64,000 bases of DNA from [Phialemoniopsis] sp. UDSM-2020 (lineage: Eukaryota; Ascomycota; Sordariomycetes; Thyridiales; Thyridiaceae), in the NCBI GenBank assembly GCA_018873225.1, contig JAEILZ010000006.1, positions 3,534,001-3,598,000 of the forward strand, written 5' to 3'. Position numbers and translations under genes: made by a program. How positions within the stretch are numbered: position 1 is the stretch's first letter; every line of letters begins with the position of its first letter. The notes below the pieces were generated by a model. That model was not told the origin of the DNA. It made no database searches and worked only from the letters and a program-made list of their open reading frames with translations. Shown here in pieces: positions 6,743 through 31,491 of the stretch.

Positions 6743-7112
6743 GAAAGTAACGGAAAGATGATGAAAGGTAATGGAGGCTTAAAAGCTTGTTGCGCGTCAC
6801 TGTCGTCAGCTCTGCTGCCCGGAGTGGTCACGGGGCATCGGAATTTCGAGGGCTGATCCGGAAGCTTTGGAAAGTCTCGGGTTCGGCAAATTCAGCGAAG
6901 AGGAGCTAGCCAGAAATGACCGACCCCGACTTTTCAGGCCGATTTTGGCATCAACAAAACAGTCCGCGCAGGTACGGCACCTACTGGTCTGGAACTGGAG
7001 CTCGTTACTTATTATCGGACTTGCCACTCATAGACCGTCGAGATCCCTAGTACTCCGAATTCTCCGTCGACCACTGCGTTCCGTCGACCAATCTGCGTTC
7101 GGTGTGGAGTCT

Positions 7113-7988
7113 ATGGCCGAACCCTCCCTCGATGCAAGAATGGATCTTGACCCCGATATGGTCCAGCGGCCCATCCGCAAGCGCAGACGCCCAGCTAAGA
7201 GCTGCGAGCAATGCCGAAAGCGCAAGATCAAATGCGATCTCGAGGTTGGCCAGCACTTTCAGATGTTCGCTCGAGCGCGCTGTACTGACACGACTCCAGG
7301 AACCGTGTGGACCGTGTATGAAAGCACGCGCTCCTCTTGCATGCTCTTACAGCGCAGGCACTTTGCGAGAAGCGCCGCCCTCGCAAACCGGGCCTGAACT
7401 GACTACGACGGATGACGACCTTCTTGATGTCCCTCGCTCGTACGAATCTTTACGAGAGACTCCCGCGGAGGTAGAGAGGTCTCTTCTTGAAGAGAGGGTC
7501 ACTCAGGATGGGGTCGTCTCTACGACGAATGCCGCGTTGAAGGATTTACGAGCAAGACTCGCGCATCTGGAACGACAAGTCAGCTCGGTGACCCGAAGTC
7601 GAACCATTAATTCAAATGTCGCCTCTTCGCATGTGATAGATGATTTGCACGAGCGCATTACGAAGATAGAGTCGGCAATCCATCCAGTAACGGTCCAAAG
7701 GCCAGAACTTTCCGTTCCACCTACCGGACCTCGCCTCCGAGTTGGCAATGCCAAGACGAGACTCTTTGGCCCCGGTCACTGGCTGCATACTGCAGCAAAG
7801 GTACTATCTTCTCATCATCTATCAAAGTAGGATGCCCGTAATACTGACATCGCACACAGTTCCAGGTGCTCGGCAGCTTTGATCATGTCGAAGTGGCTAG
7901 TAACTGCATGGTATTTACAATAGAAGCTCACCCTATGATTACGCACCCACGCTTCCAGCACGGAGATAAGAGGAGCTATTTTGGGTAA
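7113..7988 (+). CDS. Zn2Cys6 transcription factor, N-terminal half (gene split; see 15769-17465)
   Basis: Exons 7113-7244, 7300-7800 and 7860 onward. After a basic KRRRPAKS the zinc cluster is CEQCRKRKIKCDLEEPCGPC...C, with the first intron inside it; the six Cys spacing is exact (2-6-5-2-8). A coiled-coil region (LKDLRARLAHLERQV, then LHERITKIESAI) and the conserved linker FGPGHWLHTAAKFQVLGSFDHVEVA follow. After that the resemblance stops: the frame runs through 28 unrelated residues to TAA at 7986-7988, giving about 253 residues instead of the usual 700-800. The missing part, the fungal regulatory domain, is found on the same strand from 15769. A GT donor at 7900 and an AG at 15767-15768 join both halves in frame (789 aa). 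Confidence 0.7.
7914..7928 (+). repeat. Left member of a possible terminal inverted repeat
   Basis: TTTACAATAGAAGCT here matches, in inverted orientation, 15726-15740 (TTTACAATCGGAGCT on the minus strand) at 13 of 15 positions. It lies 14 bp inside the GT end of the block that splits the regulator. ATGG occurs just outside both members, which could be a target-site duplication but is too short to prove it. Confidence 0.3.
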
Positions 7989-8489
7989 GGCGAAGGTAGC
8001 AGGATGATAGGAGGGTGATCTCTGCGCAGACCCCAGACACCATCGATCAGGACCAACAATCCCAGCCCAGCCACAGATGTTCTAGATCGTCTGGAGCGCG
8101 TGATCTGTGTCCTGCTTAAGCACCCATCCCTACGGCTTTTTCATTTACCGGTAGTGATCTAATGGCCAATGTAGCTGAATTGCAACGACTTTCAGGTATC
8201 GTGTCCTCGGATTCCTAGCCGTCCCGCAAAAAGTTAAACCGTCAGGGGGAGGCACCGGTAACATGCTCACAGCAAATCTAGGATCAGCTAAGATAACGCA
8301 CACGGCCAAAACCCGTTTATACGAAGTGTAGACTTAACTCTATCCTTCCGAAATAATACACAGAATCTAGAAATTAAAATTGGTCCATGTTGCTAGATCA
8401 GTCGAGCTCAACAGTTCATTCACAGGATGTGATGACACTGAGCCTCGGCAACATTCGTCACATCAGCGAAACCCGTATGTCTGAGAATC
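7989..8489. other. Intergenic, no gene seen
   Basis: About 500 bases between the broken end of the regulator half and the 3' end of the hydrolase gene. AT-rich towards 8300-8390. No supported feature. Confidence 0.5.
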
Positions 8490-9446
8490 TCAAGCCCAGT
8501 TTTCAAACCACGTCACAGCTTGATAAAACGCCTGCTCCTTTCCAAATCGTTGCTGTGGGTCGGATATGTTGCCGCGCGTGCCGAAGCCATGAGGCGTGCC
8601 CGAGTAGAGTGTTACTTGGAACGGCTGCGTGGTGTTTCCCAACAGCGCTTCAATATCCAGCCGCCTCTCTGGGAGCATTAACTGATCAATTTCTAGATGG
8701 CGAATGTCACAATCAGGACATGTACATTTTCAATCAAAGGATATGGAACAGAACTAACCGGCAGCGGCGATGCTGACAGGCGCATTCACACCAGATACCT
8801 CATCGTCCTCAAGCAGGCTTGGGTGGGCAGTGAAGACAACATCTGTGCCCCGGGCTTCACCTCCGAAACGGAACGCATAGCGTCCCCCAAAGCAGTATCC
8901 AGTTACGGCGAGCGTCTTGACGTCTACGGTGTTTCGCAGGTAGTCGATGGTAGTCTTGACAATCGGGTCTACCTGCTCCGGTGTGTGCCTGGCCAGGAAT
9001 TCGGTCGAGTTGAAGGTGATATCATGCGGGGCAGGATCACCCGAGAAGATATCGGGCATGACAGTGAAGAAGCCGGCGCGGGCAAAACTGTCCGCCAGGC
9101 TAGAGGCGACGATGTCAGCTGGACGGAGACATGCTCCGGAATTCATTGCCCCTCACAGCTTGTTTTCGTTCAGAGGGAGTCCAAAGGCATCCGTCAAATA
9201 CAGGACAGCCTTGTCAGTTGTACGATCCTTCGTCTCGCTTACATACATCGTGACTAGGACTGTCAGGTTTGATCATTACGCAACAACGCATGGTGAATGG
9301 AGACACATACTGTCATTGTGGACCTCTTCTTTCCCTACCGGCGTCCCTTCGTGTGCAATGATGCTGCACGGTTTATTGACAGCGGTTGTGCCCATGACTG
9401 ATGTGCCGAGCCAAAATGCAACACAGAAAGTCAATGAGAGGAGCAT
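8490..9446 (-). CDS. Secreted dienelactone hydrolase-family protein
   Basis: Four exons (9446-9311, 9259-9157, 9099-8759, 8692-8490) give 260 residues. A signal peptide (MLLSLTFCVAFWLGTSVMG) is followed by the family start CSIIAHEGTPVGKEE. Core marks are LYLTDAFGLPLNENKLLADSFARAG, the nucleophile Cys in TGYCFGGRYAF, Asp in AAAEIDQL and His in SGTPHGFGTRG, so the Cys-Asp-His triad is complete. A TGA that seems to interrupt exon 2 lies in an intron (GTGAGG...CTGAC...TAG). The family hydrolyses dienelactone and other lactones or esters; secreted fungal members are of unknown substrate. Neighbouring FAD oxidases inside the same block suggest joint oxidation and lactone opening of sugar or aromatic substrates, which is inference. 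Confidence 0.85.
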
Positions 9447-10098
9447 GGTTGCAAAAGTAGAGTACCTTCTGCACAGGCAGTTGACCCGAGTGATGCCTTT
9501 CAGGTGAGCTGTTCTAGCTTTTATCATTCCAGGTCGTGTTTATATGTCTTCCACTGCGGGGTGTCAATCCCAGCTCGGTCTCGGAACCCTGGCCAAGCAA
9601 TATCGACATTAGGATTGGCATCTTATGACTTGTCCTTGGAGCTTCGGGTACATGGTTGTTTCGAGGAAGCGGACTTCTTGGCACTGCTCGGCAGATAACC
9701 TTCCCCACCACTTCCCCGACGCTACTGCACCTCGGTCTCGCGACTCGAAACCAATAGGGGGTCACATCGGGCGAGACTTTGCATGTGCCGTAATGGCAGG
9801 ACATCGGCTCACACTAAGTAGCTGAGCTGGTTCGTTTGATTTGTGACAGAATGGCCTTCTTGTAAAACATTATGGAATCTCCATACATTAATAAGAATGC
9901 GAGCTACTTAAGCTATGGAGAAGACAAGAGGAGAAGAAGAGACTAGACAGGCTACACATGAACATTGATGGTAACAGAGCAAAGCATCTGCCCCGCTCAC
10001 GGACGCGGTTGATAGTCTTCTACCGCAGTCCTGAGAAGAAAGAGACGAGCAATGACTTTGCAATTTTGTAGCAACAAATGGGTCCTTCTGAGCAGAAT
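9447..10098. other. Intergenic, no gene seen
   Basis: Upstream of the dienelactone hydrolase gene and downstream of the first FAD oxidase, both on the minus strand. No clear motifs or coding content. Confidence 0.5.
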
Positions 10099-11715
10099 TC
10101 AAGACAATGCAACTTTAGCGCCTCCAGGCACCAGCTCGGTGAAGACTCGCTCAGGATCGTACTTGTCCCTGATGTCCATGAGCTTCCGCAGGTTCTCGGC
10201 TCCATAAGATGGATAGGTTTCGGGAATCTGCGTCTTCTGTATGTCACTGAGGTACATGAACGACAGCGGCGCGAGCCCGGCCGCAACAAGATTCTCGCGA
10301 ATCTTGGCGTTGGCTTCGGCATGCACTCCTAGCACACGCTCGTCGTCTTCAACTCTCGACCACAGAGGGCTCTCGACATACCAGATCGCCGGAGCGTCGT
10401 CGGGGCCCAGGCCCATGGCGTTTTCAGGGGCGGCCGTGACGATGGGCGTGATTGGGAGTATGCTGAAGGCTGTCGAGAAGCCCTCGACATCGGCGAGGGA
10501 CGTGATAGTCTCGTAGTACGTATCAAAGGCGATTCTCGCAGCCGTGGCGTTGGCGGGGCTAGTCAGCCAGTGGAACGTCGCCCGCGTGCCTAGTGGAGGA
10601 GCGTAGTTGAAATCGGTTGTCCACCGGCCCATGGTCGTGCGCGTGATGTTTCCGGTTGTGATGGGCAAGACGGGCGCCGTGAAGTTCTCGAGGCCCAGGG
10701 GCACGTCACCCTCGCCGCTGTACCAGAGGTATCCGTCGAAAGAGATCTCGCTGCTGCGCGAAGGCACCCAGCGGGTTTGGCCCTCGAAGGATGCCTTGGG
10801 ATATTCCGCGCCGTGCAGCGCAAACTGCTCGACGCTTTTGATGTATTGCTCCGATACACCAGTTCCCCACGACACCGTCCCGATCAGGGCGGAAGAAATT
10901 GGGATAGTATTGATGACGGCTTGTGTGACGATACAGTAGTTATTGCCGCCTCCAACCAGAGCCCAGAATAGGTCTGGATGTTCATCAGCATTGGCCGTCA
11001 CCGCGGTTCCATCAGCAAGGACGCACTGACGAACCACGATAAAATTGTGTCAGCCAACCAGCTCATTGCGCAGGCGGGGATGAAGATGTCACTTACATCC
11101 AACGATCTGGCAGCATTCGACATGCCGAACTCATACGACATGAAACCGAATGGGCCCCCTGTCAGGATCGCGCCAATGACGCCACCGTTGCCCGAGCGGA
11201 TACCATTGGCGCTGACGTTGAACTGATCCAGGTATGCGTACAAAGGGGGCCATGTGACACCAGACCCGATGACGACGGTCTGTCGATCATCCGAGATGAC
11301 CATGGAGCTCAGGTTCGTCATGGCCACGAGGATGCCTTCGGGGCCGATATTGGCCGCGTTGTCGATGGGCATAGCACCTCCGCTGCGAATAGAGAATTGA
11401 ACCTGGTGCTCCTTAAAAGTGCGAACGGCGAACTGCACATCCTTGGTACACTGCGGTGCAAAGATGCAGGAGGGACCTAGATAGGTCGATGAGGTCCACG
11501 AGTCTAGTTGCAATCCATTAATGACACATAATCCTGTCCAAGAAAGGATGTGGCCAGTCCTTACATTCATTCTCAAACTTGTATCGCTCCGATCCGGGGA
11601 AGAATGTCTGGTCGGGATATTGGGTAGCCAACGCCTTGCACCCGTCGTCGACAGCAGCGGATTTCACGGCCGTGATACAGGCAGCAAGTCCGAGGAAAGA
11701 GCCCCGGAAAATCAT
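10099..11715 (-). CDS. Secreted VAO/berberine-bridge-type FAD oxidase lacking the usual FAD-linking His
   Basis: Three exons (11715-11565, 11503-11097, 11025-10099) encode 494 residues. A signal peptide (MIFRGSFLGLAACITAVKSA) is followed by CIFAPQCTKDVQFAVRTF, the FAD-binding PP-loop VQFSIRSGGAMP, GSGVTWPPLYAYLD, NGGVIGAILTGGPFGFMSYEFG and HPDLFWALVGGGNNYCIVT, in the order typical of FAD_binding_4 proteins. The C-terminus (LRKLMDIRDKYDPERVFTE) has the BBE-like ending. In most relatives the loop reads GGH and the His holds FAD; here it is GGA. No Cys is present at the second attachment site (usually GxCxxxG) either, so FAD would be bound non-covalently or the enzyme has changed function. A TATAAAG lies about 95 bp upstream. 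N-glycosylation sequons are common, as expected for a secreted enzyme. Confidence 0.88.
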
Positions 11716-11806
11716 TTTGGATTGGAAGAACAAGTGGTGCTGTTCTCGGGGAAACAGACGCCTGGTGCCTCGCGATACCATCCATTTCCCGGACAGACGC
11801 GCTCCT

Positions 11807-11813
11807 CTTTATA
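11807..11813 (-). promoter_or_regulatory. TATA box of the minus-strand FAD oxidase
   Basis: TATAAAG on the minus strand, about 92 bp upstream of the ATG at 11715. Confidence 0.45.
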
Positions 11814-12241
11814 TTTGCCAACTTTATTATTCTACAACGTGGATACACTAGAAGTCACAATACTTGTATGTTGCACTGGTTCTTGTTCAACGTGCGTTGT
11901 CATGGCTTGGCTCAGTCAGCGGACCTCGCCCTTACAACTGGACTACTACTAATTGCCAGGCATAAGATCCTGCCTACTTCGTTCTAGTATGTTGCTCGAC
12001 CTTGAAGATCCGTGAAAGTTGAAACTGAGACCACGAGGCGGTGGCACATCGGATTGAGGGATTTCACATGTCTCAACAATCGTTAGACAGACAGCACTGA
12101 CCAAGCGGGGATATCGCCTAAGTTCGGAGAGATCATCCATCGTGAAAACAAAGTTCCAGCCTTCGTAGCAGCGTGATCACGATAGCATTGACTAATCTCC
12201 TGCATATTAAGGAGCGTAGTCAGGGACTACAGCGATGATCT

Positions 12242-12332
12242 CTTGGCTTGGCATGTATGCCGACACGTACTTTTACCAGATAGAAGGTTGAGACCGCGAA
12301 CGCGAGGTGCAGTAGCTTGGCTTGGCATGCAT
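12242..12332 (+). repeat. 19-bp direct repeat pair
   Basis: CTTGGCTTGGCATGTATGC (12242-12260) recurs as CTTGGCTTGGCATGCATGC (12314-12332), one mismatch, 72 bp apart, in the divergent promoter of two FAD oxidases. It may be a regulator site or a simple duplication. Confidence 0.5.
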
Positions 12333-13085
12333 GCTACCTTGATGGAGAGACCGAGCAACCTTTCTACATTTACAGGTACTGTTTTTCATTATTGGGATAG
12401 TCTGTCGAATTTGATGCAATGCCGTTCAAATTTGCTGGATTTGCAACCCTATCTAGGGCAATTTGCTCCATCAAACCATCCCTGCTAGTGGAAACAGCCT
12501 TTTGCACCGGTAGGCTCGCACCGGGAAAAACGATCTCGGTAATAGTGCTTGGACTCCACACTAAGATCTGCCGGGGTGTTTCAAGTCAAGACGATTAGAA
12601 GTCCATGCTCATGCTGGAAGGATCCTCGACTAATATCTATAATCGCCTTGAGTTGCAATTCAACGCCGAGTGCAACCTTCCAGATCGAGGACGGAGATAG
12701 CCTCGGCGTAGGCCATCGCCGGGCTCCCCAACCACAGAATTCTAGAGCTAACAAATCAGATCGATATGCGAGAGTACTCGGAACGAGAGCGAGGCAAGAA
12801 TGGGGCTGGGCGCAGGTCTGTCTCTTACTAATGCTATTGTATGTTCTCGTAATGCTCTGCGGCAAGGTCGCAGCCCTCATCTGCCAAGCCCTCAAGGGGC
12901 CAGTAATTCACACCTGTCTCCGGCCCCGACAGTCGTCCAGTCTGTGTGTAGTGCTTGGCGATCTATAATCGTAGACCACCCACAGCGGCGCATGCGAATG
13001 TACCTTGACCATAGTGATTGTCGAACCAGGTTGACAGGCAAGGAGAGCATTTGGACGATCCGTCCTACCCGGCGCGAGCAACATT

Positions 13086-13112
13086 ATCAACATGCACGGG
13101 CAACATGTTGAT
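13086..13112 (+). promoter_or_regulatory. 9-bp inverted repeat upstream of the TATA box
   Basis: ATCAACATG and CATGTTGAT are perfect inverted arms around a 9-base spacer, ending 24 bp before TATAAAAG. The position and symmetry suggest a site for a dimeric regulator of the FAD oxidase starting at 13206. Confidence 0.4.
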
Positions 13113-13136
13113 CAGGCCCCTAAACGGTCTCGACGG

Positions 13137-13144
13137 TATAAAAG
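13137..13144 (+). promoter_or_regulatory. TATA box of the plus-strand FAD oxidase
   Basis: TATAAAAG, 69 bp before the ATG at 13206. Confidence 0.55.
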
Positions 13145-13205
13145 GTCCAAGACGTAATCTGCAAAAATCGCGGTCGTCAATCATGCTTCGTACACAGATT
13201 CCAGA

Positions 13206-15060
13206 ATGCTCAACCTGTCTGTATCCTTTGTCTTTTGTCTCGCACTCGGGGCTCCTGGCATCTCCGCCGCCATAGCGGCGCCAGGATGCCGCAAATTGCC
13301 CACGGATGCCGACTGGCCAACGTTGCAAGAGTGGCAGGAGGGAATCCCCGGTATTGAGCCACAAAACAACACCGACAGCCACGGATCTCTTCCAGACTAT
13401 CGAATTCGCGCCACATCCTACGAGGATGTGCAGGCCGCGGTGAGATTCGCCGCGGCAAAAGAGGTGCGCGTTTCAGTGATCACAACTGGGCATGATCAGC
13501 TGGGCCGCAACATTGCCGGCTCTGGTCTGATCATTGATCTTTCTCTGCTTCAAGGAGCTCGGGCAATGGCGTCTTTCAAGGCAACTGTACAAGGCGTCCC
13601 GAGACTTCACGGCAACGAGTCGGTACAACCCTTCAGGCCGGTACCTGGTGCTCAAGCAGCCATTACAATCAATCCTGCTACCAACGGCCTCGGGCTCAAC
13701 TCGATTATTGACAAGTCCGGATTTTTTATGATCGGTGGCACACATGGTAAAGTCCGCCCTCCAATCTAGGTGGATCTTCGGTAGCTTTACTCATTCATGT
13801 TTAGCTGGGGTTGCGGCTGCCGGAGGATGGGGCCAGAATGGTGGCTATGGTCCTCTCACAGCCCAGAAGGGATTAGGAGTAGACCAATGGCTCGAAGCAA
13901 AGATAGTCACGCCTGATGGTGAGTTGAAGGTCGCGAACCAGGTGACCAACCCTGAGCTCTTCTGGGCAATCAGGGGTGGAGGCGGAGGCACATTTGGTGT
14001 CGTGGTCGAGGCTACTTTGAAACTGCATGCCAAGATGCCCATCCTCGGCTTCCACTGGTATATAAATTCTACGTTACCCGCCAACCTCACGGACCCAGTG
14101 ACCGGACGGACGCAAACCAGTGAGGCAATGGCGTACTTATTCTCGCAATTGCCAGAACTCCACGCCAAGGGAAACATCTCGGCTTACATCTACGTTCACG
14201 GCGACAACATTAGATGTCATGCTATTCATGCGGGCGAACAAGCTAATGCGACGGAGGCAAATAAGATATGGGGCCCGATTCTTACCAAGATGCAGTCATT
14301 CCCCGGGATGACGCCATTCCAAAGCAAGCACTTTCTATTCGACGGCTACGAGGACTTTTTCTGTACAACATATGGGCCCGCGGAAAATGACGGTGCGCCA
14401 ATAAGCCATGGAATAGTCCCGTTTGATAGTCACCTTTTGAGTGCAGTTCACTTGCAAAGTCCGAACCTCACATACGCCCTTCGGGGGACGATGGGAAGTA
14501 TGGGTGTCTTGATGACCACGCCGGGAATGAGTCTCGGTGACGGGAGTGACACGGCGGCCAATCCGGGATGGAGAGATGCCACGATCTTTCTGGTGGGTTG
14601 GAACAGTAGCTCGACCAATGTCGACGGGTTAAGAGAGTTTGCGCCCGAAATGGGAACGTACATCAATGAGGTTCGTCAAGAATGCACGCCGATGTCTGTC
14701 TGTACAGCATTCATCACTAACAAACTTCCATACATGTAGGCCAGCGTCTATGAGCCGAACTGGACTGATCACTTCTGGGGCTCAAACTATCCGCGGTTGT
14801 CTCAGTTGAAGTCGGAGCTTGATCCGAACATGGTGTTCTGGGTCAGCCCTGGCATCAATGCTGATCACATGCAAGTCGTCGATGGGAGGGCATGCCTGGT
14901 CCAACCGCGTCCTACCGTACCTAGCCTGCGTGCACCGGGTATAGAGAGACGTGTTGAGGCGGACATGGTCAATGATTACGAGTTTGTATTTGGTTTCCAA
15001 GAGCTCATCGGCACCCAGTTCCCCGCTCCGGGTGAGTTGCTGGGCCTCCAGCAAGGATGA
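13206..15060 (+). CDS. Secreted FAD-linked oxidase (VAO family, His-type flavin link)
   Basis: Three exons (13206-13746, 13805-14670, 14740-15060) encode 575 residues. A signal peptide (MLNLSVSFVFCLALGAPGISA) is followed by a pre-domain and YRIRATSYEDVQAAVRFAA, then the flavin loop VITTGHDQLGRN, where His is in the covalent-FAD position. GTHAGVAAAGGWGQNGGYGPL spans the first splice joint and matches the family's Gly-rich stretch; HPD-like TNPELFWAIRGGGGGTFGVV follows. The last exon brings YEPNWTDHFWGSNYPRLSQLK and DPNMVFWVSPGINADHMQVV, the C-terminal BBE-like signature. The third exon could instead splice at 15032 (GTGAGT) to a short alternative end; the uninterrupted frame is given. Relatives oxidise sugars, alcohols or metabolite intermediates outside the cell. 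The divergent partner oxidase suggests shared control. Confidence 0.88.
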
Positions 15061-15725
15061 GTGTTGACGCAGGTTCAATAACAATGTCGACGACATAGTT
15101 GAAGGAGATGACTATCCATGTATATATATGTAAAGCTCACTTGCTAAGATGGAAACCCACTGTCCTGCAGGGCAACGAACTCACAGGCAGTCAACACATC
15201 CAATCTTTGCTTAGCAGTCCCGTGGATGCACGGCCGAGGAGACACGCCGTACAATTGAACTCCATCAATCCCTTCACCAAATTGTTGTCGACCTTCCCTC
15301 CACTCCTTGTCTGCATCGTTTCCTTTCCCTATACGTTCAAACCTCCCGCTCTTGTCCCATTCAGTGGAGGATGCCGGCGTCGTGGTCTCCTTCAACGGCT
15401 TGTGGGCGAGCTGGATCCACATTGGCATTGCACATCGTATGCAATATGTTCTACATCGCGCCGGAGCCTCTCCGCACATTTGCGGCCTTGTAGATCTCAT
15501 TAGCTGACTTCGCCATTCTCTTGCTACAGCCGCCTTTACCAGTGACTTCATTGTCGGTGTCTCCCTCTATTACACCAAGATTATCCAGAATGAGTAGTAC
15601 AGTACTAATAAACTACTGATTATCTAATACTCATCTGCCTCACCCCTACGCAACCCTAAAGGTGAGGCCCTTGCGCTTAGCATCACCCAGCTCACCCTGG
15701 TGGATAGGGCTCGGTAATCCGAGGA
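15061..15725. other. Intergenic, no gene seen
   Basis: About 660 bases between the FAD oxidase and the second regulator half. I looked for a zinc-cluster exon upstream of 15769 in all three plus frames and found none. Confidence 0.5.
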
Positions 15726-15740
15726 AGCTCCGATTGTAAA
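15726..15740 (-). repeat. Right member of a possible terminal inverted repeat
   Basis: On the minus strand TTTACAATCGGAGCT, 13 of 15 identical to 7914-7928. It lies 28 bp inside the AG end of the inserted block. Confidence 0.3.
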
Positions 15741-15768
15741 TTCTATGGAGTGGCACCCCCTTTCCCAG

Positions 15769-17465
15769 CGGCGGACGTGTCGGCCAAAGTCAAGGTCCTG
15801 AGCGGCCTGCGGCATTCGTCAAAGAAACAGCAAGCAGTGACTCTTCACGAGCCGGTACCAGACATCGCTAGCACATTGCCTTCTAGGCAGGTCTGTGACG
15901 AGCTCGTACGGGGATACCTTAGGACGTTCGAGCCTATTTACAGGATCTTGCATCTGCCCACATTCTGGAAGATGTATGAGGCCTATTGGATCGATACAGA
16001 GAAGGGCACCCCAATTTACTTTCACATGAAACTGATACTGGTACTTGCCATCGGGACTACCTTCTACCCTCACCGCAGCGAGCTCGAGAGACTACAGCGC
16101 CTGGCACACACCTGGATCTACGCCGCGCACTGGTGGTTGACGGGACCGACGGAGAAGCTGACGTACAATCTGGACGGTGTCCAAGTAGGCTGTCTACTCC
16201 ATCTAGCGCGGAAGACAAACTCCCTGGGTGCGTCATCCTGGATATCCTCGGGGACACTGCTGCGGATGGCATTTTTCATCGGCTTGCATCGAGACCCAGA
16301 CAACTTTACCAATCTGACACCCTTCCAGTCTGAAATGCGTCGACGTACCTGGGCCACTGTCTTGGAGCTTACCATTCTGTCTACATTGGACTCTTCTATG
16401 CCGCCGGGCGTGGCTCCAGATGACTACGACACCAAAGCGCCATCGAATTTTGATGATATGGACTTGGACCCCGACTCGAAGAACTCACTGCAGCCAAAAC
16501 CTGATCAGGAGATTACCGAGACTTCTGTCCAGCGCCTCTTTCTCAGATCTTTGCCCGTGAGGATGCGTGCTACGAAGGTCATCAACAACTTCGCCAGCCA
16601 GCAGCCGTACGATGAGACCATAGAGTTGGGGACCGAGATCCGGTCCGTCTGCCGCGAGGCCGCTTCTTTCTTCCACGCATCCTTGACCCCAGCAGCGAAA
16701 TCACGCGACCTGCCATTGTCCGTCTTTCAAAAAGACTTCATCGACATGTACTTGCGGCGCTACGTCCTCTTCCTGCACCACCCTTTCGTCCTCCAGGGGC
16801 AGAACGACCCTCGCTTCTACCTGGCCCGCAAGGTCTGCAAGGAATCGGCCCTCGTCATTGCTTCGTATGCCAACGTGCTACGCTTGCCCTCGGATGATCT
16901 CGATGACCTTTCGCGGATGATTATTGGCGTTAGTGGCACTTTGAGGGGGCCGCTCAGTCTGGACGTCATCACCATGCTGGGTCTCGAACTGATCACGCAG
17001 CTCGAGGAGGATGGCGCAGGGCCTTCCACGGCCATCGACCCGCTGGACGAGATGGGCAGAGCGGCGAGGGCGCCTCTGAAGCGGGCGCTGGAACACATCA
17101 ACGAGCAGCTTCTTCAGCTAATCGCGATGGGCGTTCCCCGCCTCAAGCGTTACGGCTTCCTCTCAGTCATGCTGAGCCAGATCCAGGCCCTGGAGACCGG
17201 ACAGCCTGTAAAGAAGGCCATCTATGACGCGATGCGCGAGTGCATGGAGAAATCCTGCACATACCTGGAGGCAGCCAACGCTGCGTCGACTCCGCAGGAC
17301 TCGATCGAGAGTCTGACACGAGCCAGCACCTCTGGGACTGAAGACTTCGGGGATCCCTTTGGCTTCGATCTGAACGACATCCTCAGCCCGCATCTCATGA
17401 TGAACGTCCCCGGGACGATGTTCTTTCCTGACATGAACAATGGCGATCAGTTCAACTGGATCTGA
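15769..17465 (+). CDS. Fungal-specific transcription factor domain, C-terminal half of the split Zn2Cys6 gene
   Basis: The frame is open from 15708, but no in-frame ATG occurs until 15972, already inside the conserved domain, so this piece has no start of its own. A C/T tract ending in CAG at 15768 is a good splice acceptor. From there the protein reads ADVSAKVKVLSG, then EPVPDIASTLPSRQVCDELV, YLRTFEPIYRILHLPTFW, AIGTTFYPHRSELERL, WWLTGPTEKLTYNLDGVQV, RMAFFIGLHRDP and RRRTWATVLELTILSTLDS: the fungal_trans regulatory domain in full, 565 residues, with a normal acidic C-terminus. There is no zinc cluster. The part that would precede it ends 7.9 kb upstream at 7899. If the two are no longer joined, this piece may be silent or a DNA-binding-free remnant. 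Confidence 0.75.
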
Positions 17466-22445: not shown

Positions 22446-22629
22446 AGCGGACACAAACTCTGGATGTTTTACAGCACGATACGTGGCAATGACTTATGCA
22501 AATTCACGAAGGCGATCTTCTCTGCGAGATACGAAGAAAATGCCACTACATAAGCTGGACGGCAGACCAACTTCCCACCATCTCAGCTTACGCCATGCAG
22601 ATGCCATCTAGCGCCATCGCTCGACACCA

Positions 22630-22637
22630 TATAAATA
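22630..22637 (+). promoter_or_regulatory. TATA box of the acyltransferase gene
   Basis: TATAAATA 51 bp before the ATG at 22688. It rules out the longer upstream start at 22496, which would place the TATA box inside the coding frame. Confidence 0.6.
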
Positions 22638-22687
22638 CCGTACGACCCCGCCGCATTACTCGCATTAACGACAGATATCGTTTGGCT

Positions 22688-24049
22688 ATGGCGCTCCCGA
22701 AGCAGTCATGGAGACTGTCCCCGGTCGATTGGCTCATGCCACGGTCTTACATTACCCAAGTTCTTTGCTTTCCGTCGACAAGTTCGAACGCCCCGGCGCA
22801 CTTACGCGACGGCCTTGCCCGGACTCTTGCCGATATCCCGTATCTTCGCGGCGATGTCGTGGTCCAAGATCACCCAAAGGGATCGATCGCAATAGTTGAC
22901 TCGCCCGTTTCCTTGACTGGTCTTTTGGTCGTCAAGGACACAACTGCTCGATATGAAGATCTGCGCAGGACCGGATTCGCACCTCCGCGAATCACTGATC
23001 TGGATGTGGGACCCAGAGACCTCGCGCCGGATGGGGACCGAGCACCGGTCTTTCGCGCGGTACTGTTGCTACTCTCGGGCGGCTTCCTTTTGTCTGTCAG
23101 TGTACATCATTCAACAATCGACATTACCGGCTTCGGAGCGCTCCTCAAAATTTGGGCTTCGCATTGTAAATCAGATACAGTCGGTTCGGAGCAGCTGTTC
23201 GAATGCTGTCTCAACCGCGACGCTCTGGAGGGACATATCCGCGGCCTTTCTCATGGAGTGACAGCAGAGTTGCCCGCCTTCCTACATCGAGAAGAGAAGG
23301 TCACTGTGAAGATGCCTAGCGCAACGATAGCACACAAGCAGCTAGCGACATCCATATTCAAAATTTCCGGCGCATCTTTGAGAAACATCAAGGACAGGGT
23401 TACAAAGCACCTGGATACGAGCAAAGTCCCGTGGATCTCGACCGGCGACATCCTGTGCGGGCTCCTCTGGAGCGCTGTGGTGTTTGCTGAGCTACGCGGC
23501 ACCGAACACGCGCAAGAAAGGCCGTCCTCTTCGAGTGGTAGTTTACGTCAGATGCGTATACCTGTCAACTTTCGCCGACGCTGGGTGCCGCCATTACCAG
23601 ACGACTATTTGGGAGCTGCTTTCGGTGTGACAATGGCAACGGCAGAGGAACAGGATCTCATCCAGATCGCTACTGATGACGGAGAGCGGTCAGAGGTGGC
23701 CTTGGCACGAGTGGCCGGAGCGATACGGCAAGCAATCCAAGCAATAGACGGGAAGAGCATGAGAGACGTGGTCGCCTATTTAGGAGCTCAGGACGATCTT
23801 ACTGGATTGAAACTTGGACCTGGGCCGGCTCCAATGTCTATCGTCTCCTGGGCTGAGGAGGGGGTATATGACCTGGACTGGGGCGACGAGATAGGGACCT
23901 GCGAGGCAGTTAGAATTCCTCAACCCAAGGCGAGGAGGTACCCCATCATCCTACCGCGGCTTAGCAGCGGTGACTACGAGGTTCTTGTCACTCTGGAAAG
24001 AAGCGTCATGGATGAATTGAGGAGGTTGCGGATTATAGATCTCTTTTAA
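22688..24049 (+). CDS. Acyl-CoA-dependent acyltransferase (transferase family, BAHD/trichothecene-acetyltransferase-like)
   Basis: A single-exon gene of 453 residues. The start MALPKQSWRLSPVDWLMPR is typical for fungal members ('LSPLDQ...'). The catalytic HxxxD is in SVSVHHSTIDITGFGALL, giving His and Asp. A second conserved motif near the C-terminus is VYDLDWGDEIG, standing in for the plant DFGWG structural motif. The family transfers acyl groups from CoA to hydroxyls or amines of metabolites and acts in the cytosol. It follows a UPC2-type regulator and precedes a nitroreductase, so a small detoxification or secondary-metabolite unit is possible, but no backbone synthase is near. Confidence 0.88.
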   Translation: MALPKQSWRLSPVDWLMPRSYITQVLCFPSTSSNAPAHLRDGLARTLADIPYLRGDVVVQDHPKGSIAIVDSPVSLTGLLVVKDTTARYEDLRRTGFAPPRITDLDVGPRDLAPDGDRAPVFRAVLLLLSGGFLLSVSVHHSTIDITGFGALLKIWASHCKSDTVGSEQLFECCLNRDALEGHIRGLSHGVTAELPAFLHREEKVTVKMPSATIAHKQLATSIFKISGASLRNIKDRVTKHLDTSKVPWISTGDILCGLLWSAVVFAELRGTEHAQERPSSSSGSLRQMRIPVNFRRRWVPPLPDDYLGAAFGVTMATAEEQDLIQIATDDGERSEVALARVAGAIRQAIQAIDGKSMRDVVAYLGAQDDLTGLKLGPGPAPMSIVSWAEEGVYDLDWGDEIGTCEAVRIPQPKARRYPIILPRLSSGDYEVLVTLERSVMDELRRLRIIDLF

Positions 24050-29439: not shown

Positions 29440-31491
29440 ATGAAGCTGCGCAATGGATTGCTTGCTGGGCTCATCCTGGTGTGCGAGATCCCAGGTACCC
29501 TCCAGAATCCGTTGCAAAAACGACAAAACAACGGAACCGTGAACTCACTCGCCAGGGACCTCGAAAGAGTCGAATCTGTCCGTGAGATCAAAGATGTCCA
29601 GCGCACATTCGCCCAGTTTGCCCAGTTCGGGCGGTGGGCTGATATGGCTGCCCTCTTCTCCCCCAACGGTACACTGCAGTGGGGGAACACATCATCTACT
29701 GGGACAGAAACAATTCAGACATGGCTTCAGACTGATGCGGGGGGTATGGATGGCATTCAACCGGGCTCCCTCGACACGATGATCGTCGAGAACCCATTGA
29801 TAACCGTATCAGCCGACGGCCAGACGGCAAAGGGTCGATGGAATGGTCTCAGATTCATGGGCGATGGCAAAGGCGAGACACGCATCCAAGGCGGCATCTA
29901 CGAGAACGAGTACGTCCGGACTGATGCTGGATGGAGGATCTCGTTGCTGCACTATTACGCCCTCTACGCTGGTCCATACGTGGGAGGTTGGCGGAACGTC
30001 GGCGGCGGTCTCCCAATTGTCCCGTATCACTTTACGCCCGATGATGCCGGTATCACGGCAGCTGAACCGTTCGGAGAAGCTCCCCATACGAATGCGACAG
30101 TGGAGGAGCTTGTGCAGCGGATCGACCGGCTCAACGACGAAGACGAAGTCCGCAACTTACAGCATTCGTATGGCTACTACGTCGACCGGCGCATGTGGAC
30201 AGATGTGGTGGATCTCTTTGTGGCTAATGCAACAGTCAACATTAACGGCGCGGGAGTGTTTGCCGGCGCGACAGGAGTCCGGCAAGCCATGGCGCGGATG
30301 GGATCAGAGGGTCTTACCCAGGGTATTCTAAATGACCATCCCATCTTTGGCGCCACCGTCAACGTGCTACCGGGTGGCCATGAAGCTATTGCGCGCGGCA
30401 TCGAGGTCGGCATGATTGGCGATGCGAACTCTAAAACTGCTTCGTGGGAGTTCTCTGTCTTCCGCAACAAGTTCGTCAAGCACGAAGGTCTGTGGAAGTT
30501 CCAAGAGCTCAATGTGACGCCACTCGTCAAAGCCGACTATTTCAAGGGCTGGGGCGACGGCGGCAACTCGCCGCCGCAGAATGCTTCGGTGCCATTCCTG
30601 GACTACTCGCCTCGCAGTACTCGCAAGACTTCCAAGGCTACAAACACTACGGCCAGTTCGATTACCGACCTTGCACGTCGACTAGCCCGGTCATCTGCCT
30701 GGGATGGATCCGAAAACATCTCTTCCGCCTACGGATACCTCCTTGACGACCTAGCCTGTCCACTCCTAGGGGCCATCCACGCGTCAAAAGGCCACAAACT
30801 CTCCCCTTTCACCGGGTTCTATGCCACCCCAGACCGCATCGCTACCGCGTGCTCTACCCAATATGGTACGAACCGCTCGGCCCTGCGGTCGAGCATCTCG
30901 TTCCACTGGCGTCCGCAACCCGTCATCCTCGTCAGCTTCGACGGCCGCTCCTCAACGCTGCGGGCAAGACTACTACAGCCATCCACGAGCATCAACAGCG
31001 CTGGCTCGTTCAACGGGGCTATCTACCATGACCAGATGGTCCTCGAGGAGGGCAAAGGGTGGAAGCTGTGGAGCGTCACCATTGACGAGTTCTACTGGAT
31101 GTCGAAGAACTGGGCCGAGGGCTGGGCGACGGCGACGGTGAGCAACTCGAGCAGCAACAGCACCAACACCACTTCGTCACTGGCGCAAAAGTACCCGCCG
31201 GACCTGACGCTCCCTGAGATCGGTGACCGCGAGGCAAGTTTCAGGGGCGGGAGTGGACGGCTGATCGAGTGGCCCGAGATCCAGAGGATGTGGTTCCAGT
31301 ACCGCAATCCGGTCACGGGTAGGCTCCCCGAGTACTACTGGCCGGGCTGCGTACCCTGCCGAGCTCGGCCTGGGTGGGCTCTAGAGGCGAACGGGTACGA
31401 AGAGCCGCCGACAGGCCCGCCGCTGCTGAACACGACAGGCGGTGTATACAGGCATCGAGCTCGGCTTGGAAATAGTTGGCAGTTCTCGTGA
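29440..31491 (+). CDS. Secreted protein with three SnoaL-like repeats
   Basis: A single-exon gene of 683 residues. A signal peptide (MKLRNGLLAGLILVCEIPGTLQ) and a Kex2-type KR (LQKRQ) start it. Three related units follow: about 38-185 (VREIKDVQRTFAQFAQFGRW), about 210-370 (EVRNLQHSYGYYVDRRMW) and about 410-565 (ENISSAYGYLLDDL), each with the helix-then-sheet pattern of the SnoaL/NTF2-like fold and a 'W-R-I/F...' strand end. A C-terminal tail has an Asn/Ser-rich linker and WPGCVPCRARPGW. SnoaL-like domains are cyclases, dehydratases or hydrolases; no catalytic assignment can be made here. The third unit is more diverged. Many NxS/T sequons agree with secretion. Confidence 0.8.
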   Translation: MKLRNGLLAGLILVCEIPGTLQNPLQKRQNNGTVNSLARDLERVESVREIKDVQRTFAQFAQFGRWADMAALFSPNGTLQWGNTSSTGTETIQTWLQTDAGGMDGIQPGSLDTMIVENPLITVSADGQTAKGRWNGLRFMGDGKGETRIQGGIYENEYVRTDAGWRISLLHYYALYAGPYVGGWRNVGGGLPIVPYHFTPDDAGITAAEPFGEAPHTNATVEELVQRIDRLNDEDEVRNLQHSYGYYVDRRMWTDVVDLFVANATVNINGAGVFAGATGVRQAMARMGSEGLTQGILNDHPIFGATVNVLPGGHEAIARGIEVGMIGDANSKTASWEFSVFRNKFVKHEGLWKFQELNVTPLVKADYFKGWGDGGNSPPQNASVPFLDYSPRSTRKTSKATNTTASSITDLARRLARSSAWDGSENISSAYGYLLDDLACPLLGAIHASKGHKLSPFTGFYATPDRIATACSTQYGTNRSALRSSISFHWRPQPVILVSFDGRSSTLRARLLQPSTSINSAGSFNGAIYHDQMVLEEGKGWKLWSVTIDEFYWMSKNWAEGWATATVSNSSSNSTNTTSSLAQKYPPDLTLPEIGDREASFRGGSGRLIEWPEIQRMWFQYRNPVTGRLPEYYWPGCVPCRARPGWALEANGYEEPPTGPPLLNTTGGVYRHRARLGNSWQFS

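What the first reader, a model, noticed from the sequence alone, without database searches (positions are those of the whole stretch)
7113..17465. One Zn2Cys6 regulator gene split by a 7.9-kb block carrying three enzyme genes
The N-terminal part (zinc cluster, coiled coil, FGPGHWLHTA..FQVLGSFDHVEVA linker) ends at 7899, and the C-terminal part (ADVSAKVK...fungal_trans domain) starts at 15769 on the same strand without a start codon. Each piece lacks what the other has. GT at 7900 and AG at 15767-15768 join them in frame into a 789-residue protein with a natural-looking joint. Either a gene block was inserted into a short intron of the regulator, or the fungus splices a giant intron with nested genes on both strands. 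I know of no described case of this exact kind.
Basis: partly seen in the sequence, partly recalled or inferred. Interest (0 to 1): 0.9.

Follow-up and report, generated by a model that had tools for sequence, protein, structure and literature searches.

The report
Gene-carrying mobile element splits regulator
In this fungus a 7.9-kb mobile DNA element carrying three enzyme genes sits inside the coding part of a regulator gene, and it belongs to a family of small elements that share their ends and a six-letter target but carry different genes.

Summary
The split is real, but it is best explained neither by a giant intron nor by insertion into an intron. Both pieces match the same Zn2Cys6 regulators: all 120 listed relatives match the C piece, 83 also the N piece, 80 at a stricter cut. 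The block is a mobile element, window 7892-15754 (7863 bp), in an exon. AGTGGC lies at both edges, and the block's ends are imperfect inverted repeats. The same ends recur in the host's 44-Mb genome: 8 other left-end and 6 other right-end matches. Three other elements pair a left and a right end (3487, 5250 and, with a weak left end, 7484 bp). The four interiors share no DNA similarity; three carry recognisable, different genes. The claimed acceptor has no branch-site motif within 100 nt, and the GT-AG join would drop codons present in the C piece. I found no transposase in the elements with the searches made. Best reading: a non-autonomous, site-specific cargo element moved in trans, formally like a miniature Starship without its captain recombinase; the enzyme assignment is inference. 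The host species is unidentified, and no empty site or transcript was available.

The parts
7113..7897 (+). N-terminal piece of the regulator: exons read by eye as 7113-7244, 7300-7800 and 7860-7897, introns 7245-7299 and 7801-7859
   Evidence: 83 of 120 relatives match the region 7050-8200 by tblastn, 80 at E<=1e-5 and ending before 7909; intron ends printed
15749..17465 (+). C-terminal piece of the regulator (Fungal_trans domain); first in-frame ATG only at 15972, upstream in-frame stop at 15705
   Evidence: PF04082; 120 of 120 listed relatives; frame facts
7892..15754 (+). whole mobile element, 7863 bp counting both hexamers
   Evidence: ends shared with other loci; size
7892..7897 (+). left AGTGGC direct repeat / target hexamer
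15749..15754 (+). right AGTGGC direct repeat / target hexamer
7892..8051 (+). conserved left end (about 130-160 bp) with inner arm ATTTACAAT
   Evidence: 8 other matches in the genome; alignment
15595..15754 (+). conserved right end (about 130-160 bp) with inner arm ATTGTAAAT
   Evidence: 6 other matches in the genome; alignment
8490..9446 (-). cargo gene 1: dienelactone hydrolase family, multi-exon, frames linked by eye
   Evidence: PF01738 E 3.4e-13; frames; ends
10099..11715 (-). cargo gene 2 (BBE1): FAD-linked oxidase, multi-exon; the start codon is my choice
   Evidence: PF01565 E 6.8e-15; relatives up to 90% identical; ends
13206..15060 (+). cargo gene 3 (BBE2): FAD-linked oxidase, some relatives named isoamyl alcohol oxidase
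   Evidence: PF01565 E 1.7e-8; relatives; ends

Best explanation
A 7.9-kb non-autonomous DNA element with conserved ends and three apparently intact cargo genes integrated at the hexamer AGTGGC in an exon of a Zn2Cys6 regulator gene, leaving AGTGGC on both sides. It belongs to a family in this genome whose members share about 130-160 bp at each end and the hexamer but carry unrelated interiors. Shown by sequence: the split, the repeat family, the near-constant hexamer, the unrelated interiors. Inferred: a recombinase supplied in trans recognises the inverted ATTTACAAT arms and exchanges or inserts at AGTGGC; a tyrosine recombinase is slightly favoured over a DDE transposase. Inferred consequence: the regulator is inactivated, leaving at most a truncated DNA-binding piece whose frame stops in the element at 7986, while the three enzyme genes move as one unit.
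For: Both pieces match the same relatives. Ends are dispersed repeats: 8 other left, 6 other right matches; pattern scans 7 and 7 with 0 control matches (these patterns include the hexamer, so they are biased to it). In the BLAST-found ends, which did not require it, the hexamer is AGTGGC at 6 of 9 left ends and AGTAGC at 2 (1 lacks it), and AGTGGC at 6 of 7 right ends and ATTGGC at 1 (window counted). Left end and reverse-complemented right end align with score 22 against a maximum of 17 in 5000 mononucleotide shuffles. Three more loci pair a left and a right end. Interiors have no cross hits at E 1e-3. Relatives read FD-x-x-EVE-P where the N piece reads FDHVEVA and the C piece VAPPF.
Against: No empty site, no second strain, no RNA. 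The linker varies in length among relatives: the V of the N piece and the V at 15750 fall on the same residue in 1 of 17, and 2, 4, 6 or -9 residues apart in 3, 11, 1 and 1, so the exact ancestral bases are not proven. Most ends are unpaired: of the 8 other left-end matches only one (L033) has its right end among the 6 other right-end matches. L044's left end is weak. No transposase or recombinase was found in the elements, so the mobilising enzyme is unknown. The reading that the L033 element also splits an exon was not confirmed by Pfam, NCBIfam, PDB or a paralogue.
Confidence: 0.9

Rival explanations
1. A giant 7.9-kb intron with nested genes on both strands, spliced at GT 7900 / AG 15768.
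For: GT and AG are present and in frame; the C piece lacks an ATG near its start; the C frame is open.
Against: No CTRAY in the last 100 nt, unlike the gene's two small introns; the join skips about six codons of the C piece that extend to the hexamer; the edges are ends of a dispersed repeat family. GT and AG are common enough to occur by chance.
Confidence: 0.04
2. Insertion of the element into a pre-existing short intron of the regulator, with splicing of the enlarged intron possible.
For: The junction falls in a linker of variable length.
Against: Coding frame is readable on both sides up to the hexamers; no branch motif on the acceptor side.
Confidence: 0.03
3. Assembly artefact: the halves are separated by a misjoined block.
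For: None specific.
Against: The block's ends coincide with ends of a repeat family and with the hexamer at other loci; the contig is 4.17 Mb long.
Confidence: 0.03
4. As in the best explanation, but the mobilising enzyme is a DDE-type transposase with a strict hexamer preference, so the AGTGGC copies are an ordinary target-site duplication.
For: Inverted terminal repeats; size range typical of DNA transposons (1-8 kb for other fungal elements, PMC12153272 passages).
Against: A nearly constant hexamer at separate insertions is unusual for a DDE duplication (general knowledge); no such enzyme found inside the elements.
Confidence: 0.4

Closest known systems
Starship elements (fungal giant transposons with a captain tyrosine recombinase)
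   Same: Variable gene cargo between ends, short direct repeats that reflect the target motif, terminal inverted repeats (19 of 20 with DRs of 2-12 bp, 18 of 20 with TIRs in A. fumigatus; PMC12153272 passages).
   Different: Here 3.5-7.9 kb, against about 20-700 kb; no captain found in the elements and no DUF3435 gene at a family end.
ToxTA (formerly ToxhAT), a 14-kb non-autonomous element that carries a gene in wheat fungi
   Same: Non-autonomous, terminal inverted repeats, carries genes (PMC12506042 passages).
   Different: Its target duplication is TA and it is placed near Tc1/mariner; here the repeat is AGTGGC.
Gene-carrying hAT element with histone H3 in Pseudocercospora, and Pack-MULEs
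   Same: Transposon ends that carry captured host genes (PMC6710886 passages).
   Different: The hAT copies keep transposase domains and one gene; here the cargo differs in each element and no transposase was found.
Crypton elements
   Same: Short direct repeats at the ends (recalled).
   Different: Cryptons are said to lack the inverted repeats and cargo seen in Starships (PMC12134995 passages); the only GCR1_C match in the genome has no family ends within the 4 kb fetched around it.
Zn2Cys6 regulators related to LepE / OpdR
   Same: C piece 57% identical to a Cladobotryum protein named LepE-like and 51% to a Penicillium oxalicum protein named opdR in UniRef.
   Different: Here the gene is interrupted; the names are the sources' and the function is untested.

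Membership tests
Starship | Captain tyrosine recombinase (DUF3435) at the 5' end | tested here: not met
   No DUF3435 match in the element; 5 matches at three places elsewhere, none with family ends
Starship | Flanking short direct repeats at a preferred target | tested here: met
   AGTGGC at both edges and at nearly all BLAST-found ends
Starship | Terminal inverted repeats (most, not all) | tested here: met
   Score 22 against a shuffle maximum of 17; alignment
Starship | Size about 20-700 kb | tested here: not met
   3487-7863 bp; range from PMC12153272
Starship | Empty sites in other strains | not testable with these tools
   No second strain of this fungus held; G000 has no relatives here
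Crypton | Encodes a tyrosine recombinase, with GCR1_C in fungal ones (recalled) | tested here: not met
   One GCR1_C match genome-wide, outside the family
DDE transposon (Pack-type) | Inverted repeats and target-site duplication of variable sequence, captured genes | tested here: inconclusive
   Inverted repeats and genes present; the repeat sequence is nearly constant; no transposase found
Zn2Cys6 / Fungal_trans regulator | Zn cluster and PF04082 in one gene | tested here: inconclusive
   PF04082 in the C piece; Zn-cluster piece matches the same relatives; the pieces were kept apart, so one product was not tested
Giant intron with nested genes | Donor, branch site and acceptor with spliced transcripts | tested here: inconclusive
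   GT and AG present, no CTRAY within 100 nt; no RNA data

The most novel reading that the evidence does not exclude
A family of miniature, captain-less cargo elements ('mini-Starships'), moved in trans by a tyrosine recombinase, that carry whole two- or three-gene sets between AGTGGC sites and can land in coding exons.
Probability: 0.3. Interest if true: 0.75.

Novelty: new variant of a known kind. Interest (0 to 1): 0.55.

Why it matters
It shows how small sets of fungal genes could move as compact units to a fixed hexamer, with different cargo between similar ends, a simple route for gene sets to become scattered among fungi. It also turns a supposed giant intron into an insertion whose history can be tested. 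If the enzyme is a tyrosine recombinase acting in trans, Starship-like cargo movement would extend to elements under 8 kb.

Tried and rejected
Giant intron: disfavoured on branch motif, skipped codons and repeat-family ends. Block copied from elsewhere in this genome: the interior (8060-15580) matched only itself and three short pieces at C7:3748540-3748941, and the best paralogue of BBE1 is 33% identical. DUF3435 genes as residents of the family: none of the three places has family ends. Crypton through GCR1_C: no family ends beside the one match. Loci with two left-type ends (L040) or two right-type ends (L043) were not counted as units, because their hexamers are not in direct orientation (judged by eye). 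More copies through L044's left end: only itself. Support for the L033 exon reading: Pfam and NCBIfam up to E 10 on both flanks, PDB on one flank and a paralogue search in the own genome with that flank gave nothing. Viral-contig scans with two end motifs: 0 matches in 2 scans. Rfam at gathering thresholds, 7800-15800: 0 matches. Direct and inverted repeat search at seed 11: missed the ends.

Literature: 8 searches, seen as listings with abstract openings; passages read in PMC12153272, PMC12506042, PMC6710886 and PMC12134995. For captain-less or mini-Starships one search found 0 papers with at least two of its six terms; the library holds open-licence PMC papers only. PMC12134995 itself mentions derelict Starships that lost the captain. 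No tool gave the neighbourhood of the relatives in other fungi, and the host species was not identified.
Full report
What is there. The window lies at C8:3534001-3598000 of a 44.2-Mb genome in 11 contigs. The C piece (15750-17465) carries PF04082. A search with it found 167 relatives, 120 listed, headed by a Cladobotryum LepE-like protein at 57% identity. By tblastn (E 0.01) all 120 match the C piece and 83 also match the region 7050-8200; 80 of these do so at E 1e-5 and end before 7909. The 37 without an N match are 488-702 residues long (median 567), the 83 with one 600-887 (median 777), so the misses look like partial models or shorter proteins. The two pieces thus belong to one kind of gene.

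Where they meet. Relatives read FQVLGKFDAKEVEPS...; the N piece reads FQVLGSFDHVEVA and the C piece, in frame upstream of the claimed acceptor, reads VAPPFPAADVSAKV. Aligned apart to the 17 relatives that passed a motif and score filter, the V of the N piece and the V at 15750 fall on the same residue in 1, and 2, 4, 6 or -9 residues apart in 3, 11, 1 and 1; the -9 comes from a gapped alignment. The linker varies in length, so this supports an insertion in coding sequence without proving the exact bases. The GT-AG join would remove about six more codons. There is no CTRAY in the last 100 nt before the claimed acceptor, while both small introns of the N piece have CTGAC near their ends.

The block is a mobile element. 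Its ends are imperfect inverted repeats (score 22; maximum 17 in 5000 mononucleotide shuffles). The left 200 bp has 8 further matches in the genome and the right 200 bp has 6. Pattern scans with up to 3 mismatches find 7 left and 7 right ends, the window's included, with 0 matches of the reversed control; these patterns contain the hexamer and so favour it. At the BLAST-found ends, which did not require it, the hexamer is AGTGGC at 6 of 9 left ends, AGTAGC at 2 and absent at 1 (L039), and AGTGGC at 6 of 7 right ends, ATTGGC at 1 (window counted). Four elements have both ends: the window's (7863 bp), L033 on C9 (3487 bp), L042 on C11 (5250 bp) and L044 on C6 (7484 bp). L044's left end is weak (8 substitutions) but is found at E 3.1e-15 by a left-end profile that did not contain it. 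Most other ends are unpaired within the 10 kb fetched. Without about 200 bp at each end, the four interiors have no cross hits at E 1e-3.

A second possible exon split. On the minus strand of L033 one flank ends ...ASGWLYDQMQLSADGLGGH and the other begins HLYDFYRYVARSTWLGG, with the histidine codon in the hexamer. I read this as another coding exon split at AGTGGC, of a glycosidase-like gene recalled from memory. No family, solved structure or paralogue confirmed it, so it stays a reading.

Cargo. The window element carries a dienelactone hydrolase gene (8490-9446, minus), an FAD oxidase gene BBE1 (10099-11715, minus) and a second FAD oxidase gene BBE2 (13206-15060, plus); domains, limits, exon links by eye. 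L042 carries an FAD_binding_3 monooxygenase and a fungal rhodopsin-domain protein; L044 a TLC-domain and a HlyIII-type protein; L033's scanned reading frames had no Pfam match. BBE1's named relatives include proteins 83-90% identical from Diaporthe, Nemania, Fusarium, Clonostachys, Phaeoacremonium and Boeremia (540 found, 120 listed). In a tree of 22 rows, 21 of them picked by hand from that list, the window falls in an unresolved group of 17 that mixes orders and classes; 7 of 19 inner branches are well supported. BBE2's best identities are 81-83% to two unnamed environmental proteins and 77% to a Pestalotiopsis protein (the query held some intron-derived residues). By equal contig length, BBE1 and BBE2 relatives share a contig in at least Diaporthe eres (SLS64_006030 and 006031), Clonostachys rosea and Boeremia exigua; there the BBE2 relatives are only 56-62% identical against 83-90% for BBE1, which speaks against one recent transfer of the pair from those species. 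Horizontal transfer is plausible, not shown, because the host's normal divergence is unknown.

How it probably works. The ends hold inverted ATTTACAAT arms, with AGTGGC beside them and a few variable bases between. A near-constant hexamer at separate insertions suggests site-specific recombination, as in Starships, whose direct repeats typically reflect part of the target site (PMC12153272 passages). No recombinase was found in the elements by the Pfam scans made, which covered chosen reading frames, not every one. The genome has DUF3435 matches at three places, none with family ends, and one GCR1_C match, likewise without them. I therefore favour a non-autonomous element moved in trans; tyrosine recombinase against DDE transposase is about even, slightly favouring the former.

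Consequence. The N frame runs into the element and stops at 7986; the C frame has a stop at 15705 and its first ATG at 15972. Neither piece is the whole regulator. Loss of the regulator is the simplest outcome; a truncated DNA-binding protein that competes for sites is possible. The open C frame suggests that the insertion is not very old. These three points are inference.

Against the reading. No empty site, no other strain and no RNA were available; most family ends are unpaired; the enzyme is unknown; the second exon split is unconfirmed.

Noticed in passing
C7:3748540-3748941 (L050-L052): Three short matches, 70-83% identical, to the region just inside the window element's right end (window 15216-15573); perhaps a diverged relative.
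   Followed up: no
L040 and L043: L040 has two left-type ends and L043 two right-type ends in opposite orientation, perhaps independent or nested insertions.
   Followed up: partly
L041:6289-8784 (+): An 832-residue open frame without a Pfam match about 850 bp inside a right end; its start looks GIY-YIG-like to me (recalled). Not shared by the other elements.
   Followed up: partly
window 22496-24049 (+): Acyltransferase (PF02458 and PF22664, a model named after trichothecene 3-O-acetyltransferase) close to the split regulator; the name shows family only.
   Followed up: no
window 29440-31491 (+): A 683-residue frame with three SnoaL-like domains in tandem.
   Followed up: no
BBE1 and BBE2 relatives appear to be neighbours in Diaporthe eres, Clonostachys rosea and Boeremia exigua, with very different identities for the two genes.
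   Followed up: partly
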